From the NCBI GenBank assembly GCA_903882935.1, contig CAIRZB010000027.1:1-64000 (forward strand): 64,000 nt of DNA. Reading direction: 5' to 3'. Within the stretch, counting starts at the first letter, position 1. Each line of letters begins with the position of its first letter. This document shows positions 1,375 through 57,734 of this stretch, piece after piece. The notes under the pieces were generated by a model that saw only the letters and a list, made by a program, of their open reading frames with translations, did not search any database and was not told the DNA's origin. Both the position numbers and the translations under genes were made by a program. Source of the stretch: an uncultured Parafilimonas sp. Its GTDB lineage: Bacteria > Bacteroidota > Bacteroidia > Chitinophagales > Chitinophagaceae.

Positions 1375-1596
1375 AACTGTATATTGGTTAAAGTGCTAAG
1401 GTAATAATGGAAGCCCACAATTTTTAAATAAGGTACCGCTTTCATTAAACAGTAACACATGCGGTTGGTGTTACCAGCCGTTTTTGCCTGCCATATTATT
1501 GGCCAGTTTACGCCCAAGGCTACAAGATTGGCTTGTTTTTTACCCTTTGCGTAAACCCCTTTCCCGATACAGTAAGGCCTGCCTTAGTTGGGGGGA

Positions 1597-1604
1597 TAGC
1601 TTTG
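1597..1604 (+). promoter_or_regulatory. candidate -7 box TAGCTTTG upstream of porin
   Basis: The octamer matches the Bacteroidota -7 consensus TAnnTTTG exactly. It lies 6 bases before the ATG at 1611, which would put the transcription start at or next to the start codon (leaderless or nearly so). No clear TTG -33 element is present at the usual spacing. Confidence 0.35.
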
Positions 1605-1610
1605 CGCCCT

Positions 1611-2846
1611 ATGAGAAATATAGTACTTACATTAATTTTTGGCCTCGGTTTTGGTGTGGCAAATGCGCAGTACCGCACCAATGCCCAGCAGTTGGTGATG
1701 ACCAACGCGGATTCGTTAAACGCCGGCACTTCAAAAAATAAAACGGTTATTTCAGGGTATGGCAGCGCTTTTTACCAACAGGATTTTAACCAGCATTTGT
1801 CATCAGCAACGCTTGAAAGGGCGGTGTTGTTTGTGGGCCACCAGTTTAACCAAAGGATAGCTTTTTTTTCGGAGTTGGAGATTGAAAATGCCAAAGTGGA
1901 AGGTGGGGCAAGCAACGGTGCTGAAATATCTATGGAGCAGGCTTATTTGAAATTTAACCTAATTGCATCCCAATACATTGTGGCGGGGTTGTTTGTGCCG
2001 CGAATAGGCATTTTGAATGAAAACCACCTGCCCGTAAACTTTAACGGGGTGGAACGCCCCATGGTGGAAACCTTCATAATACCTGCCACTTGGCGGGAGC
2101 TTGGCGTAGGTTTTTACGGCAAGGCAAACCGTTTGCCTTTAAACTACACCGTAGCGTTATTAAACGGGCTAAACAGTGCCAATTTAAACCATGGCGATGG
2201 TATACGCGGTGCCCGTGCCGAAGGCAGCCTGGCCACCGCCAACAACCTGGCCGTTACCGCCTCGGTGCAATACAATGTGGGTGATTTTAAGTTTCAAGTA
2301 TCAGGCTACGTGAGCGGCACGGTTGGTTTGTCGCCCCGTGGGGCCGATAGCTTGGGGCTTAACAGCGGTGCATTTGGCACCCCTTTGTATTTGGGCGAGG
2401 CAAATGTGCAGTACAGTAAAAATGGCTTTTCCGCCAAGGCATTGGGTAGTTATATTGCCTACCCTAGTGCCGCCGACATTAATACCGCCTACGCCAAAAA
2501 CATTGCCAAAGGCATGTATGGTGCCTATGCAGAGCTTGCCTATAACTGGCTGTACACGAAAAAAACAGCCGTACAGTTCATCACTTTTTTGCGGGGAGAA
2601 ATGCTAGACATGAATGCATCCATACCTGCCGCCCCAAAGGCAATTTATGACGGTACGGAAAAACAATCGCATATCATTGTCGGCATAGGTTACCTGCCTG
2701 TGCCCAACGTGGTAGTAAAAGCCGATGTGCGCTTTATGCAAACAGGGGCGCAAAACCCCGATTTGGTCATCAACCCATCCCCCAGCGCATTGCCCTACAA
2801 ACAACAAAACCAGTTTTTGAATATAGGGATAGGCTATTCTTTCTGA
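1611..2846 (+). CDS. outer-membrane porin-like beta-barrel protein
   Basis: A 411-residue protein. I chose the ATG at 1611 because it begins a clean signal peptide (MRNIVLTLIFGLGFGVANA, cleaved before QYRTN); the upstream open frame has no signal character. The mature part has the alternating hydrophobic/polar strands and aromatic residues of an outer-membrane barrel and ends in an aromatic residue (IGYSF), a usual barrel-insertion signal. Segments such as VGHQFNQRIAFFSELEIENA and VAGLFVPRIGILNENHLPVN resemble phosphate-selective porin O/P-like proteins. It is the first gene of a run with Rieske, imelysin and di-heme genes, so a role in metal or small-solute passage is plausible but inferred. 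Confidence 0.75.
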   Translation: MRNIVLTLIFGLGFGVANAQYRTNAQQLVMTNADSLNAGTSKNKTVISGYGSAFYQQDFNQHLSSATLERAVLFVGHQFNQRIAFFSELEIENAKVEGGASNGAEISMEQAYLKFNLIASQYIVAGLFVPRIGILNENHLPVNFNGVERPMVETFIIPATWRELGVGFYGKANRLPLNYTVALLNGLNSANLNHGDGIRGARAEGSLATANNLAVTASVQYNVGDFKFQVSGYVSGTVGLSPRGADSLGLNSGAFGTPLYLGEANVQYSKNGFSAKALGSYIAYPSAADINTAYAKNIAKGMYGAYAELAYNWLYTKKTAVQFITFLRGEMLDMNASIPAAPKAIYDGTEKQSHIIVGIGYLPVPNVVVKADVRFMQTGAQNPDLVINPSPSALPYKQQNQFLNIGIGYSF

Positions 2847-2849
2847 GGG

Positions 2850-3084
2850 GTCCATGGCAATAAACAGCCATAGTCCATGGTCGATTGTCCATAGCCCATG
2901 GTAAGAAACAGCCTAGCCCTTAGTCCATGGCCCATGGTCGATGGCAAGAAACTGGGAAAGGATATAAATGGAAACGAGCGGCGGTTTTACTATGGACCAT
3001 GGGCTATGGACCATGGACAATGAACCATGGGCTAAAAAAATAATCAAGGATTTTACAATGGACTATGGACCATTAACCATGGAC
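2850..3084. repeat. inverted arrays of a degenerate 7-bp repeat (GTCCATR)
   Basis: Starting 4 bases after the porin stop codon, units of the form GTCCATG/GTCCATA/GCCCATG run in strict 7-base phase at 2866-2900 and 2923-2943 (with one isolated unit at 2850-2856). The reverse-complement form (TATGGAC/CATGGGC) runs in 7-base phase at 2991-3032 and 3057-3084. About 45 bases of non-repetitive sequence (2945-2989) separate the two orientations, so the transcript could fold into a long imperfect hairpin. A second region of the same architecture lies at 56688-56822. No ORF or mobile-element gene is inside. Function unknown. Confidence 0.85.
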
Positions 3085-3090
3085 TAAACT

Positions 3091-3534
3091 ATGCAACGAC
3101 GAAACTTTTTAAAATCATCCTGTAATATCTGCCTGCTGGGGGCGGCAGGGTTTGCACTTCCAAAACTTACCGGCTGTAGCCCGGCCTTGCACAGCACGGG
3201 GGTGTACAAAGCAACTATTGTGGGTAATGCATTGGAGATTCCATTGGCATTGTTTGAAAATACCAGCCTTCAGGTTGTGCGGCCACTGGGCTGGTTTTAC
3301 GACATAGCCGTTGAAAAGCGGGCAAACAATACGTACGCCGCCCTACTGATGCAATGCACCCATCAGGATAACCAGCTTACCGCAAGCGGCACGGGCTTTA
3401 GCTGTAGCCTACATGGCAGCCAGTTTGACAAAAACGGCAACGTGCTTAAAGGCCCTGCGGAAGACCCGTTGCGGCAGTACAAAACAACCATTGGCAAAAG
3501 CACCCTCACCATTGAGGTACCAAAAACACCATAA
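3091..3534 (+). CDS. Rieske [2Fe-2S] protein, Tat-exported
   Basis: A 147-residue protein with an N-terminal RRNFLKSS twin-arginine motif and a short hydrophobic stretch (residues 12-24), so it is probably exported folded by the Tat system; a CS pair at 29-30 could alternatively be a lipobox. The Rieske cluster ligands are clear: Cys89-Thr-His91 and Cys105-x-x-His108, followed by GSQFD-NG. It is shorter than the Rieske subunits of bc1/b6f complexes and there is no cytochrome b next to it, so it probably works as a small electron-transfer protein with the imelysin (1 base downstream) and the di-heme protein (inference). Confidence 0.88.
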   Translation: MQRRNFLKSSCNICLLGAAGFALPKLTGCSPALHSTGVYKATIVGNALEIPLALFENTSLQVVRPLGWFYDIAVEKRANNTYAALLMQCTHQDNQLTASGTGFSCSLHGSQFDKNGNVLKGPAEDPLRQYKTTIGKSTLTIEVPKTP

Positions 3535-3535
3535 C

Positions 3536-4612
3536 ATGAAAAATACCATATTTATATGTGCATTGGGTATTGCAACCATTACTGCGTCGTGCCACAAGGC
3601 TACCCAAAACCCCAGTGCCACGGAAAATTTTGCCACGCTGGAGCAAACCGTGATAAATGACTTTGCCAATAACACGGCACTGCCACAATACGCCAATATG
3701 GTAAGCGCGGCCGTTGCATTAAACAGTGCGGTAACCACGCTACATTCAGCCACCACAGATGCCAATTTGCAAACGGCACAAGCAGCCTGGAAAACCCTGC
3801 GCACAGGTTGGGAACAATGTGAAGGCTTTTTGATAGGCCCTGTGGAAGCCAACGACTACGACCCAAATACTGACACTTGGCCGACCGACAAAACCCAGCT
3901 AGACTCCCTATTGGCCAGTAACAACGCATTGCAGGCGGGTGATATTGCCGTTTTACCGCAATCGCTAAGGGGGTACCACCCGCTTGAATACATGCTTTTT
4001 GGGGTGGGTGGGTCACGCACGGCAGCCAGCCTTACCCAAAAGCAGAAGCAATACATGGTTAGCCTTGCGGCCGACATGCTCAACAATAACATTCAGCCAC
4101 TGTACCAAAGCTGGGTATCTGCACCCACTAATTATGCACAGCAGGTTATTACAGCAGGCAAAGGCAGTGCAGCCTACACCAAAAGGCTCGACTTTTTTCT
4201 TGACATAACCGGTGATAACGGCATGGCGGGTATTTGTGGCGAAGTAGGTAGCGAAAAAATGTATGAGCCGTTTATCAATAAGGATTCCACGATAACAGAG
4301 TCACCATACTCTGACAATACCCTGCTTGATTTTAAAAACAACATCATCGGTGCGCAAAATGTGTACCTAGGGCTTAATGGCGGCAAAGGGCTTAGAGACT
4401 TGGTGGCATTGCAAAACAAAAGCTTGGATAATAAAATACAGGCACAGTTTGCCGCTGCCATCAGTGCTTTTAGCAATATAACCGTACGGTATGAGCAGGC
4501 CATTTTTACGCAGCGGGTGCAAGTACAGCAGTTGATGGACCAATTGGCGGCCCTAAAAGATATTTTAGAAAACGATCTCACTGATTTTTTGAAGCAGTAT
4601 GTAAAGGATTAA
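3536..4612 (+). CDS. imelysin-family lipoprotein (periplasmic iron-binding type)
   Basis: A 358-residue protein. I chose the ATG at 3536 because it starts a lipoprotein signal peptide ending ITAS-Cys19 and lies 1 base after the Rieske stop; the longer open frame upstream lies inside the Rieske gene. The imelysin signature GxHxxE is present as GYHPLEY (His148, Glu151). The two-domain alpha-helical length is typical of the imelysin/IrpA/EfeO-like family, which is tied to iron acquisition. Direct coupling to the Rieske gene and the di-heme gene downstream matches the known pairing of imelysin with di-heme oxidoreductases in Bacteroidota. Confidence 0.9.
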   Translation: MKNTIFICALGIATITASCHKATQNPSATENFATLEQTVINDFANNTALPQYANMVSAAVALNSAVTTLHSATTDANLQTAQAAWKTLRTGWEQCEGFLIGPVEANDYDPNTDTWPTDKTQLDSLLASNNALQAGDIAVLPQSLRGYHPLEYMLFGVGGSRTAASLTQKQKQYMVSLAADMLNNNIQPLYQSWVSAPTNYAQQVITAGKGSAAYTKRLDFFLDITGDNGMAGICGEVGSEKMYEPFINKDSTITESPYSDNTLLDFKNNIIGAQNVYLGLNGGKGLRDLVALQNKSLDNKIQAQFAAAISAFSNITVRYEQAIFTQRVQVQQLMDQLAALKDILENDLTDFLKQYVKD

Positions 4613-4614
4613 AC

Positions 4615-4809
4615 GGCGGCGGGCACAATGCAATCATCAATGACTATCAGCTATTTGGTTTGGCTACCTATTGGTCGTCGCAGTTGTTGGGTGTTTTCAC
4701 CAACAACGATCATCCGGGGTTGATATTCCATGAGAATATGACGTGGCGGATGGCTAAAATACCAACCAATGCGGGCAAAGATTTTTTAAAGCTGGATGTA
4801 AAGGATTAA
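4615..4809 (+). pseudogene. orphan coding fragment after imelysin
   Basis: One frame is open for about 65 codons and reads like real protein (FGLATYWSS, GVFTNNDHPG, WRMAKIPTN), ending FLKLDVKD then TAA. There is no start codon at its beginning and it is in a different frame from imelysin. Its last bases resemble the end of imelysin (which ends FLKQYVKD then TAA), suggesting a recombination or duplication joint at the shared end. I do not recognise the family. It is best read as the 3' remnant of a deleted gene between imelysin and the di-heme gene. Confidence 0.4.
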
Positions 4810-4860
4810 AGGCAACTGGCGGTATTCAATTTTAAAATTACAATGGAGTAGTGAGAACAC

Positions 4861-10667: not shown

Positions 10668-10696
10668 GAGTAAGAAACACAATAAGCGTGGGCAGA

Positions 10697-10717
10697 GTTA
10701 AAAGTTAAAAGTTAAAA
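10697..10717 (+). repeat. three tandem copies of GTTAAAA
   Basis: A perfect 7-base unit is repeated three times in the lptB-metF intergenic region. It is short and AT-rich and could be chance or slippage. It shares the 7-base period of the larger arrays at 2850-3084 and 56688-56822 but not their sequence. Confidence 0.6.
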
Positions 10718-55070: not shown

Positions 55071-56702
55071 ATGCGCCTAACAATTTTAACCATCTGCCTT
55101 TTGGCATTTTTCTCCTGCACACCCAAGCAACAGGCCGACCTAATTATACACAACGCGCTGGTGTACACGGTAGACAGCAGTTTTAGCAACACGGAGGCCA
55201 TTGCTGTAAAAGACGGCAAAATACTTGCTTTGGGCAGCGGCGACAGCCTATTGAAAGTTTTTGATGCCAAAGAAATAGTGGATGCCAAGGGCCAGGCTAT
55301 TTACCCCGGTTTTATTGATGCCCATGCCCATTTTTTACAATACGGCCAAAGCCTGTTTACCGTTAATTTATATGGTTGTGCCAGCACCGAGGAAATGGTG
55401 GCCCGGGTGCAGAAATTTGCCGCCGAACACCCCGGCGAAGCCTGGATTACCGGCCGCGGTTGGGACCAAAACAAATTTCCGGGCAAGCAATTCCCCTCCA
55501 ATGAGCGGCTTAACCAATTGTTTCCAGATAAACCCGTGGTATTGGGCCGGGTAGATGGCCATGCCCTGTTGGTAAACAACAAGGCCTTAGGTTTAGCCGG
55601 CATAAAACCGGGGCAAACCCTTACCGGCGGTTCAGTTGAAACAAAAAATGGCGAACTTACCGGTATATTAATTGACAATGCCGAACGCCTAATGTTTGCC
55701 GTAATGCCCAAACCCACAAAAAATGATTACGCCAAATGGTTGGTAGCCGCCCAACAAAACTGCTTTGCGCAGGGGCTTACCACCATAACCGATTGCGGTT
55801 TGGGCTACAAAGATGTAGACGCCATTGATTCGTTGCAGCAGGAGGGTAAATTGGCCATGCGCTTATACGTTATGCTGAGTGATGCAAAAGATAATTACGA
55901 CCGCTTTTTGGCACGCGGACCCTACAAAACCAATAAGCTTTATGTGCGGGCCTTTAAGGTGTATGCCGATGGTGCCCTTGGCAGCCGCGGTGCCTGCCTG
56001 TTGCAGCCCTATAGCGATAAAAAGGCCTGGGGCGGCTTTTTGTTAAACACCCAAGCGCATTACGACTCTGTTGCAAACTTATTGGCAGGCACTAATTTTC
56101 AACTGTGTACCCATGCCATCGGTGACTCGGGCAACCGTATGATACTAACAGCTTACAATAAATACCTGCAGGGCAAAAATGATAAACGTTGGCGTATTGA
56201 ACATGCCCAAATTATTAACCCAGCGGATGTTAGCCTGTTTGGCAACGCCTCCGTCATCCCATCCGTGCAGCCAACCCATGCCACCAGCGATATGTATTGG
56301 GCGGGCGACAGGCTGGGGGCAGAAAGGTTAAAAGGCGGGTATGCATACAAACAGTTGCTACAACAAAACGGTTGGATTGCATTGGGCACTGATTTTCCTG
56401 TGGAAGATATTAGCCCTTTTAAAACATTTTTGGCGGCTGTTTTTAGGGTGGATGCAAAGGGATACCCAACGGGCGGTTTTCAAATGGAGAATGCGTTGAG
56501 CCGGGAAGAAACCATACGCGGCATGACGATATGGGCCGCCAAAGCGGATTTTTTAGAACAAGAAACCGGTAGCTTGGAAGTGGGCAAAGCGGCCGATTTT
56601 ATCATACTGGACAAAGACCTGATGAAAATACCTTGGAACGAGGTGCTGCAAACAAAAGTGGTGGCAACGTACTTGCAGGGGAAAAGAGTCCATGGGTCAT
56701 AG
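55071..56702 (+). CDS. YtcJ-like amidohydrolase family lipoprotein
   Basis: A 543-residue member of amidohydrolase family 3. A lipoprotein signal peptide ends LAFFS-Cys. Metal ligands are visible as PGFIDAHAHFLQYG, THAIGDSGNR, HAQIINPAD and GTDFPVED. YtcJ-type enzymes hydrolyse amides of unknown nature. The last four codons (VHGS) and the stop codon lie inside the 7-bp repeat array beginning at 56688, so the repeat has supplied the C-terminus. Confidence 0.9.
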   Translation: MRLTILTICLLAFFSCTPKQQADLIIHNALVYTVDSSFSNTEAIAVKDGKILALGSGDSLLKVFDAKEIVDAKGQAIYPGFIDAHAHFLQYGQSLFTVNLYGCASTEEMVARVQKFAAEHPGEAWITGRGWDQNKFPGKQFPSNERLNQLFPDKPVVLGRVDGHALLVNNKALGLAGIKPGQTLTGGSVETKNGELTGILIDNAERLMFAVMPKPTKNDYAKWLVAAQQNCFAQGLTTITDCGLGYKDVDAIDSLQQEGKLAMRLYVMLSDAKDNYDRFLARGPYKTNKLYVRAFKVYADGALGSRGACLLQPYSDKKAWGGFLLNTQAHYDSVANLLAGTNFQLCTHAIGDSGNRMILTAYNKYLQGKNDKRWRIEHAQIINPADVSLFGNASVIPSVQPTHATSDMYWAGDRLGAERLKGGYAYKQLLQQNGWIALGTDFPVEDISPFKTFLAAVFRVDAKGYPTGGFQMENALSREETIRGMTIWAAKADFLEQETGSLEVGKAADFIILDKDLMKIPWNEVLQTKVVATYLQGKRVHGS

Positions 56703-56822
56703 TCCATGGTTGATGGCCCATAGTCCATAGTAAAGCAACCACCGTGGGTGTTTCAGGGCGAGTAGTTTGCATTGTATTGCCATGGACAATCGACTATAGA
56801 TTATGGGCTATCGACTATAGAA
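56688..56822. repeat. second inverted array of the 7-bp repeat (GTCCATR)
   Basis: Six consecutive in-phase 7-base units of the GTCCATG/GCCCATA type (56688-56729) face six in-phase units of the reverse-complement type (CATGGAC/TATCGAC, 56781-56822), around a unique core of about 51 bases. The array overlaps the amidohydrolase stop codon and ends 7 bases before the gldA stop codon on the other strand. Same architecture as 2850-3084. Confidence 0.85.
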
Positions 56823-56828
56823 CAAACA

Positions 56829-57734
56829 CTACCCCTTTGTTAATTCCCTAAAAATATCTTCCAATTTATTGCCTTTGGTACCCAGGGATGTAATATCCAA
56901 ATTATGGCGGATGGAAAGCTCCAACAATTGCTTACGTGCTTCATCAATATTGCTGGTGGTTAGCTGCCAAGTGCCGTCGTTGGTTTGGTTGGCACCAGTA
57001 ATGGCGGGTAAGTTTTGTAATAATTGGGCATCTACTGGCGTTTTAAAGGCCACCTGTACAACATCCCCATGGTTGGCCTTTTGCAGGTTTGCCAGCAAGC
57101 TGTCGGCCACTATCTCGCCCTTGTTTATAATAATCACCCGGTCGCAAATGGCTTGTACCTCCTGCAATATATGGCTGGAGAAAAGCACGGTTTTGTTGGC
57201 TCCCTGCGCCTTAATCACATTCCTTATCTCAATAATCTGGTTGGGGTCAAGCCCGGTGGTAGGTTCGTCTAAAATAAGCACTTCGGGGTTATGCACCAAG
57301 GCTGCGGCAAGCCCCACGCGCTGTTTATATCCCTTAGACAATTGGCCGGTTTTCTTCCTGCTTTCCAAGGTTAGCCCCGTAAGGGCAATTACATCATCAA
57401 TGGCCTGCTTGCTATTTTTTATGTTGTGTACCCCTGCCACAAACTGTAGGTATTCCCGCACATACATATCGTAATACAATGGGTTGGCCTCAGCCAGGTA
57501 GCCTATGGTACGTTTAACCGCCAAAGGGTTTTCGTGTACATCCAACCCGCAAACGGTGGCATGGCCCGCATCGGGTGCCAAGTAACCGGTAATAATTTTC
57601 ATGGTGGTGCTTTTGCCCGCGCCATTTGGCCCAAGAAAACCCACTATCTCCCCTTTGTTTATCGAAAATGAAATATTATTTACTGCTTTTTGCGGGCCGT
57701 ATGTTTTTAATAACTGGCTAACCCTTATTGACAT
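56829..57734 (-). CDS. gldA: gliding-motility ABC transporter ATPase GldA
   Basis: A 301-residue ABC ATPase with [20 protein letters not shown] (Walker A), QLSKGYKQRVGLAAAL (signature) and VLILDEPTTGLDPNQ (Walker B). The GYLAEANPLYYDMYVREYLQFVAG block is typical of GldA, which with GldF and GldG forms an ABC complex needed for gliding motility in Flavobacterium. GldFG are not in this window, so motility cannot be concluded. A general ABC-2 role is the alternative. Confidence 0.88.
   Translation of the reverse strand: MSIRVSQLLKTYGPQKAVNNISFSINKGEIVGFLGPNGAGKSTTMKIITGYLAPDAGHATVCGLDVHENPLAVKRTIGYLAEANPLYYDMYVREYLQFVAGVHNIKNSKQAIDDVIALTGLTLESRKKTGQLSKGYKQRVGLAAALVHNPEVLILDEPTTGLDPNQIIEIRNVIKAQGANKTVLFSSHILQEVQAICDRVIIINKGEIVADSLLANLQKANHGDVVQVAFKTPVDAQLLQNLPAITGANQTNDGTWQLTTSNIDEARKQLLELSIRHNLDITSLGTKGNKLEDIFRELTKG

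What the first reader, a model, noticed from the sequence alone, without database searches (positions are those of the whole stretch)
2850..3084. Inverted arrays of an in-phase 7-bp degenerate repeat between the porin and Rieske genes
Read in steps of 7 from 2866, units of the form GTCCATG/GTCCATA/GCCCATG recur without loss of phase, and after a unique 45-base core the reverse-complement form recurs in phase. The phase is kept although single bases drift, so this is more than low complexity. It sits directly after a stop codon inside what otherwise looks like one operon. It could fold as a long stem, act as a terminator or attenuator, or be a dispersed element that grows by slippage.
Basis: seen in the sequence. 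Interest (0 to 1): 0.7.

Follow-up and report, generated by a model that had tools for sequence, protein, structure and literature searches.

The report
Four-unit heptamer boxes between bacterial genes
Between two genes of a Bacteroidota bacterium lies a long DNA hairpin built from small boxes of 7-letter repeats, usually four to a box; such boxes are scattered through the genome, and close relatives often carry the same kind of box at the same spot written in other letters, which points to an undescribed repeat system rather than random slippage.

Summary
The repeat is real and far above chance. It is not one in-phase array but two nested inverted pairs of short boxes that fill the gap between the two genes. 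Arrays sampled from this genome and two same-genus genomes have exactly four units in 103 of 136 cases (87 of 117 without local near-copies), mostly followed by a G and an A-rich trailer; of the four focal boxes two have four strict units. Two-armed clusters in this genus are convergent in 34 of 35. The unit is GTCCAT here, GTTCAT in one sister, both in the other. An 8-bp unit also peaks at four (17 of 30). Sister genomes hold some array at the same junction in 13 of 18 cases against 3 of 13 control junctions (Fisher p 0.011; 0.029 at a stricter cut-off). At the focal junction the three closest relatives found carry arrays of at least two other units, while nine more distant ones have a bare gap of about 0-60 bp. 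Best reading: dispersed extragenic foldback boxes kept in a genome-specific dialect by an unidentified trans-acting factor, behaving somewhat like REPINs or DNA-uptake dialects but failing defining features of both. Slippage alone fits poorly. No RNA function was shown.

The parts
   Evidence: the same neighbour in 14 related contigs
2850..2865 (+). one-unit remnant GTCCATG plus GCAATAAAC
2866..2900 (+). outer left box: degenerate AGCCATA, then four strict units from 2873
2901..2909 (+). trailer GTAAGAAAC
2916..2943 (+). inner left box: degenerate GCCCTTA, then three strict units from 2923; register differs by 1 from the outer box
2944..2952 (+). trailer GCAAGAAAC
2953..2983 (.). core between the inner boxes
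   Evidence: cores of sampled elements are mostly unrelated
2984..3032 (-). inner right box: trailer 2984-2990, six units 2991-3032
3050..3084 (-). outer right box: trailer 3050-3056, four units 3057-3084
3091..3534 (+). Rieske [2Fe-2S] protein gene
   Evidence: PF00355, E 1.5e-10
3536..4612 (+). imelysin (Peptidase_M75) gene
   Evidence: PF09375
4861..6240 (+). di-haem oxidoreductase gene (DHOR), anchor for finding relatives
   Evidence: (PF06537)
56688..56736 (+). second element, left box: six units and trailer GTAAAGC; the TAG at 56700-56702 inside unit 2 is the stop of the upstream frame by my gene caller
56781..56829 (-). second element, right box (more degenerate)

Best explanation
The feature belongs to a dispersed family of extragenic foldback elements. 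Its basic part is a box of usually four 7-bp units (about GYCVATN in this genome) followed by a G and an A-rich trailer. Boxes sit singly near the edge of an intergenic gap or as convergent pairs that can form a long hairpin. Shown in the sampled loci: dispersal, the peak at four units, convergent order in this genus, a genome-specific unit, and arrays at the same junctions in relatives, often in another unit. Inferred: a trans-acting factor recognises or writes the box (a transposase-like enzyme as for REPs, or a binding protein as for uptake sequences), so that the boxes of a genome share a dialect which can be replaced at the same sites. A hairpin between cistrons may then act on the mRNA; this step was not shown.
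For: 166 overlapping two-unit hits against 8 for the reversed control. Exactly four units in 54 of 75, 20 of 23 and 29 of 38 arrays of three same-genus genomes; 40 of 59, 20 of 22 and 27 of 36 after removing local near-copies; 17 of 30 for the 8-bp unit. Three-unit pattern hits in G000, G001, G002: GTCCAT 69, 0, 33; GTTCAT 0, 32, 23. In G002, 6 of 41 arrays mix the two dialects against 32.6 expected; in the 7 arrays that hold no selecting pattern, 0 are mixed against 3.4 expected. Order first plus, last minus in 34 of 35 two-armed clusters. Same-junction arrays 13 of 18 against 3 of 13. L055: both arms GTCCAT-type in G000 and GTTCAT-type in G001. Hairpin z below -2 in 22 of 24 chosen two-armed elements.
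Against: No enzyme or binding protein was looked for. No two of 37 boxes from different places are identical, with only a mild excess of close pairs (94 at 3 or fewer differences against 68 expected, 7 of 300 simulations reaching it), so recent copying is not shown. Arms of one element are no more alike than arms of different elements (17 elements, permutation p 0.35). Pair spacing varies from 35 to 280 bp in 11 strict pairs. Purity beyond expectation was seen only in G002 (G000: 22 mixed against 22.0 expected; G001: 2 against 2.9), and most G002 loci were picked by near-pure patterns. In G002 arms agree in dialect in 8 of 10 only. The G001 focal junction folds no better than shuffles (z -0.8). 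Order is minus then plus in G415 (L105), in G078 (L091, L093, minus arm of a TATTGAG type) and by my reading in L178. Arrays of 9-10 near-identical units occur in G389, G431 and G320 (one locus each).
Confidence: 0.4

Rival explanations
1. Satellite-like evolution: units arise by polymerase slippage with a 7-8 nt step, inverted arms by template switching, and dialects spread between loci by gene conversion; no dedicated factor, no function.
For: In 235 intergenic regions without the selected units, period 7 arrays occur in 35 and period 8 in 6, in many unrelated units. Heptanucleotides as the commonest class and a polymerase explanation are reported for Mrazek 2007 in PMC4679880 (section read). 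Long near-identical arrays in other lineages.
Against: Sharp peak at four units for two unit types. A unit shared by many loci of one genome and lacking as a three-unit match in the sister needs more than local slippage. Arms are not homogenised within elements.
Confidence: 0.26
2. Selected RNA hairpins between cistrons (mRNA stabilisers, processing sites, terminators or insulators); the repeats are only the way the stems are made.
For: 22 of 24 chosen two-armed elements fold better than shuffles. The focal right arm ends 6 bases before the Rieske start codon. In L172 the 74-bp gap before DHOR is almost wholly one hairpin.
Against: 45 of 63 clusters in G000 are single-armed. Single arrays border gene starts (13) as well as stops (8) and 12 of 52 clusters lie between divergent genes by crude calls. 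The G001 focal junction folds weakly. A hairpin needs no 7-nt period.
Confidence: 0.16
3. An uptake or recombination signal: the boxes are recognised during DNA uptake and dialects spread by biased replacement at homologous loci, as for DUS dialects.
For: Site kept while dialect changes, one genome with two dialects, inverted pairs: the last two have a direct parallel in DUS (PMC3630211, passages).
Against: 166 overlapping two-unit hits against 1543-3770 DUS in three genomes of that paper; DUS are single short motifs. Competence was not examined.
Confidence: 0.1
4. The boxes are written by an RNA-templated, telomerase-like reverse transcriptase.
For: A fixed short unit of arbitrary sequence; DRT10 makes 9-nt tandem repeats from a poorly conserved RNA template (PMC12632851, abstract and passages).
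Against: No enzyme or template was looked for; DRT10 products were recovered by enriching non-chromosomal DNA in that paper.
Confidence: 0.05
5. Chance or low complexity.
For: None found.
Confidence: 0.01

Closest known systems
Intergenic TAACTGA heptamer repeats (MacGregor 2015, PMC4679880; abstract and two sections read)
   Same: Intergenic 7-bp repeats, patchy in Bacteroidetes, Cyanobacteria and Beggiatoaceae; indels in 7-nt steps; arrays present in a species and missing in the shorter gap of its relative.
   Different: One unit, almost only direct repeats, sets of two to six with arrays up to 43. Here degenerate units, a peak at four, convergent pairs, a trailer, and other units at the same junction in relatives.
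REP / REPIN elements with RAYT transposases (PMC3116915; passages read)
   Same: Small extragenic repeats as singlets and inverted doublets that can form hairpins.
   Different: REPs have highly conserved ends and a set spacing within a group; here tandem units, variable spacing, no identical copies in the sample. RAYT not tested.
DNA uptake sequence dialects in Neisseriaceae (PMC3630211; passages read)
   Same: Species-specific dialects, inverted pairs, one genome with two dialects.
   Different: Single short motif at higher copy number with uptake shown; here multi-unit boxes and no function shown.
Long simple sequence repeats of 5-11 nt (Mrazek 2007; known here only through PMC4679880)
   Same: Heptanucleotide units are a common class.
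   Different: Tandem arrays defined by exceeding an expected length; no four-unit boxes or inverted pairs in the account I read.

Membership tests
REP/REPIN | inverted doublets able to form hairpins | tested here: met
   34 of 35 two-armed clusters convergent; 22 of 24 fold z below -2; but 45 of 63 G000 clusters are single-armed
REP/REPIN | highly conserved ends and roughly constant spacing | tested here: not met
   no identical pair among 37 boxes, spacing 35-280 bp in 11 pairs; cores mostly unrelated
REP/REPIN | associated RAYT transposase | not tested
TAACTGA-type intergenic heptamer repeats | intergenic 7-bp tandem units | tested here: met
   11 of 52 clusters overlap a called open frame by more than 30 bases, real or spurious
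TAACTGA-type intergenic heptamer repeats | unit TAACTGA in direct repeats | tested here: not met
   unit about GYCVATN, inverted pairs
DNA uptake sequence | single short motif at high copy number | tested here: not met
   multi-unit boxes, 166 overlapping two-unit hits
DNA uptake sequence | preferential uptake of DNA bearing the motif | not testable with these tools
   needs transformation assays
intrinsic terminator | hairpin followed at once by a U-run | tested here: inconclusive
   not met at the focal site; T-run of 4 or more within 20 nt on at least one side in 9 of 24 elements, no control
known Rfam RNA | match at or above a family's gathering score | tested here: not met
   0 matches in the window
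MITE-like element | internal sequence shared by copies | tested here: not met
   50 masked elements: apart from repeat-like matches, distant loci share sequence only in two groups, L033/L036/L037 and L053/L056

The most novel reading that the evidence does not exclude
Chitinophagaceae-like Bacteroidota carry a genome-wide repeat code: boxes of four short units at the edges of intergenic gaps, in inverted pairs, read or written by a trans-acting system whose specificity changes between species, so that sets of boxes switch unit (GTCCAT, GTTCAT, GTCSGRAA and others) at sites that stay put.
Probability: 0.3. Interest if true: 0.85.

Novelty: new variant of a known kind. Interest (0 to 1): 0.62.

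Why it matters
Heptamer repeats between bacterial genes have been reported without an evident mechanism. A peak at four units, genome-specific dialects and other units at the same junctions in sister species make that puzzle testable: they suggest a factor to look for and give natural same-site comparisons. If the hairpins act on mRNA, they would be an unrecognised kind of operon punctuation.

Tried and rejected
Slippage as sole cause: fits poorly with the four-unit peak. Correction of one arm by the other: arms within an element are no more alike than between elements. Transposition of whole elements with a shared core: not supported. Preference for convergent genes: not seen (11 convergent, 26 tandem, 12 divergent, 3 at a contig or locus edge, of 52; background gaps 33, 130, 49). 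Rfam: no match. Intrinsic terminator at the focal site: no U-run directly after the arm. Literature searches listed heptamer-repeat, REP, DUS and reverse-transcriptase papers; I saw none that describes this architecture, but only four papers were opened, none in full. The search for unit strings hit only wheat and fly papers.

Limits: gene calls come from a small codon-score caller of mine. Loci were chosen for holding a pattern, so counts are not genome totals, and box detection imposes part of the consensus. G001 and G002 are 63% and 69% complete. Junction table: five rows with a target locus fetched for its arrays were dropped (L038/L101, L049/L100, L052/L115 twice, L126/L070); five rows were carried by hand; other rows were left out as duplicates of gene-anchored rows, as lying in genes, or with no array on either side. 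Some junctions count twice, once per sister genome. The target cut-off was 0.0125; at 0.01 it is 12 of 18 against 3 of 13, p 0.029, and for GTCCAT elements alone 9 of 14 against 3 of 13, p 0.054. L051B, which looks to me like an inverted ACGAAT-type pair, was counted as no array. The second window element (56688) gave no comparable junction. Of 74 loci, 20 were examined.

Full report
Observation. The two-unit pattern with up to two mismatches occurs 21 times in the window against 0.81 expected, none of 100 shuffles reaching 21; five of the hits form a second element at 56688-56829. Phase is kept only inside boxes. The focal boxes have 4, 3, 6 and 4 strict units. RNA folding of 2840-3095 gives -100.2 kcal/mol, z -7.4, 0 of 200 shuffles as stable.

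Genome-wide. In the own genome (5.5 Mb, 114 contigs) the two-unit pattern with one mismatch has 166 overlapping hits, the reversed control 8. Arrays were first parsed in the window and 40 fetched loci, 33 of G000 and 7 of G002. In larger sets, two-armed clusters run plus first and minus last in 18 of 18 (G000), 6 of 7 (G001) and 10 of 10 (G002); 45 of 63 clusters in G000 are single-armed. In a few G000 clusters (L050, L052, L058) one arm is of another unit type. Single arrays read GTC inward from the nearer gene edge in 17 of 21, the outer edge being a start in 13 and a stop in 8 of the 21. Of 52 clusters, 11 overlap a called open frame by more than 30 bases.

Box size. Exactly four units: 54 of 75 arrays in G000, 20 of 23 in G001, 29 of 38 in G002; without local near-copies 40 of 59, 20 of 22, 27 of 36. 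Among 54 four-unit arrays of G000 the unit is GTCCAT in 45, 27, 22 and 43 at places 1 to 4. The next bases are G (91-97%) and then A-rich: A at trailer places 3 and 4 in 78% and 81% of 54 G000 boxes, 65% and 60% of 20 in G001, 66% and 72% of 29 in G002. An 8-bp unit, GTCSGRAA, shows convergent pairs (for example L117, L120, L121, L124) and a peak at four units, 17 of 30, with a weaker trailer. Among 235 intergenic regions without the selected units, period 7 arrays occur in 35, period 8 in 6, periods 5, 6, 9, 10 and 11 together 10 times, against 2 in one shuffle per region; they use many other units.

Dialects. The three-unit GTCCAT pattern with one mismatch has 69, 0 and 33 hits in G000, G001 and G002, GTTCAT 0, 32 and 23, GTCSGRAA 6, 18 and 15. 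Place 3 of the unit is C or T 328:37, 5:100 and 102:69. Mixed arrays: 22 of 79 in G000 (22.0 expected), 2 of 25 in G001 (2.9 expected), 6 of 41 in G002 (32.6 expected, minimum 25 of 2000 shuffles). Most G002 loci had been picked by near-pure patterns; in the 7 arrays that hold no such pattern 0 are mixed against 3.4 expected. Arms agree in dialect in 13 of 13, 6 of 6 and 8 of 10. Beyond the genus the pattern is patchy: 7 of 79 relatives (the two same-genus genomes and the window's own genome being in that list), 24 of 395 genomes of the phylum. In G415 and G078 the order is minus then plus; in G389, G431 and G320 single loci hold 9-10 near-identical units; G171, G286 and G431 show plus then minus.

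Same junctions. Of junctions with any array in G000, 13 of 18 have a period 7 or 8 array in the sister genome, against 3 of 13 without (Fisher p 0.011; 0.029 with a 0.01 cut-off). At L039 three junctions in G001 hold GTTCAT units or an AACATAA/AACACAG array. At L055 both arms are GTCCAT-type in G000 and GTTCAT-type in G001; the G002 version has a T-type left and a C-type right arm. At L034 a similar AAACTNT array stays in all three genomes. A scan of named genomes with the di-haem oxidoreductase alignment gave 74 loci; 20 were examined and 14 have the focal gene order. Nine others have gaps of about 0-60 bp without arrays; L176 and L245 have longer gaps without a significant array. L178 has a second inverted pair in the same unit. 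Between imelysin and DHOR, L172 and L178 carry different array pairs where L184 has 15 bp.

Against a simple mobile element. Cores are mostly unrelated, no two of 37 boxes are identical, spacing is variable, and arms of one element are no more alike than those of different elements.

Interpretation. Slippage alone fits poorly with four-unit boxes and shared dialects; a selected hairpin alone does not explain the 7-nt period or the single boxes. I favour dispersed foldback boxes maintained by an unidentified trans-acting factor, with REPINs (PMC3116915, passages), DUS dialects (PMC3630211, passages) and TAACTGA heptamers (PMC4679880, abstract and two sections) as nearest known kinds. The trans-acting factor is inference; no gene for it was looked for.

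Noticed in passing
window 4613-4860: The gap between imelysin and DHOR holds a stretch like the imelysin 3' end (GGATGTAAAGGATTAA), as if the gene end was duplicated; the gap is 3-152 bp in 13 relatives.
   Followed up: partly
L058, L044 5123-5233, L062, L040 4682-4807: A second heptamer family, GTGAATC/GTGAAAC/GTCAATC, forms long arrays in the same genome and is sometimes the opposite arm of a GTCCAT box (L050, L058).
   Followed up: partly
G194, G195, G176, G337: The control pattern read backwards has many hits (for example 161 in G194), so other genomes of the phylum seem to have an abundant heptamer of the form GNTACCT.
   Followed up: no
L246-L275: Thirty stretches of the viral collection hold the exact three-unit GTCCAT pattern; not opened.
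   Followed up: no
window 10696-10717: AGTTAAA repeated about three times, another period-7 array.
   Followed up: no
L034 about 1934-2073 and orthologues in L147, L148: An AAACTNT heptamer array is kept at the same junction in all three genomes with nearly the same unit, unlike many GTCCAT sites.
   Followed up: partly
window 56697-56702: The second element's left box runs into the upstream open frame and supplies its stop codon TAG.
   Followed up: partly
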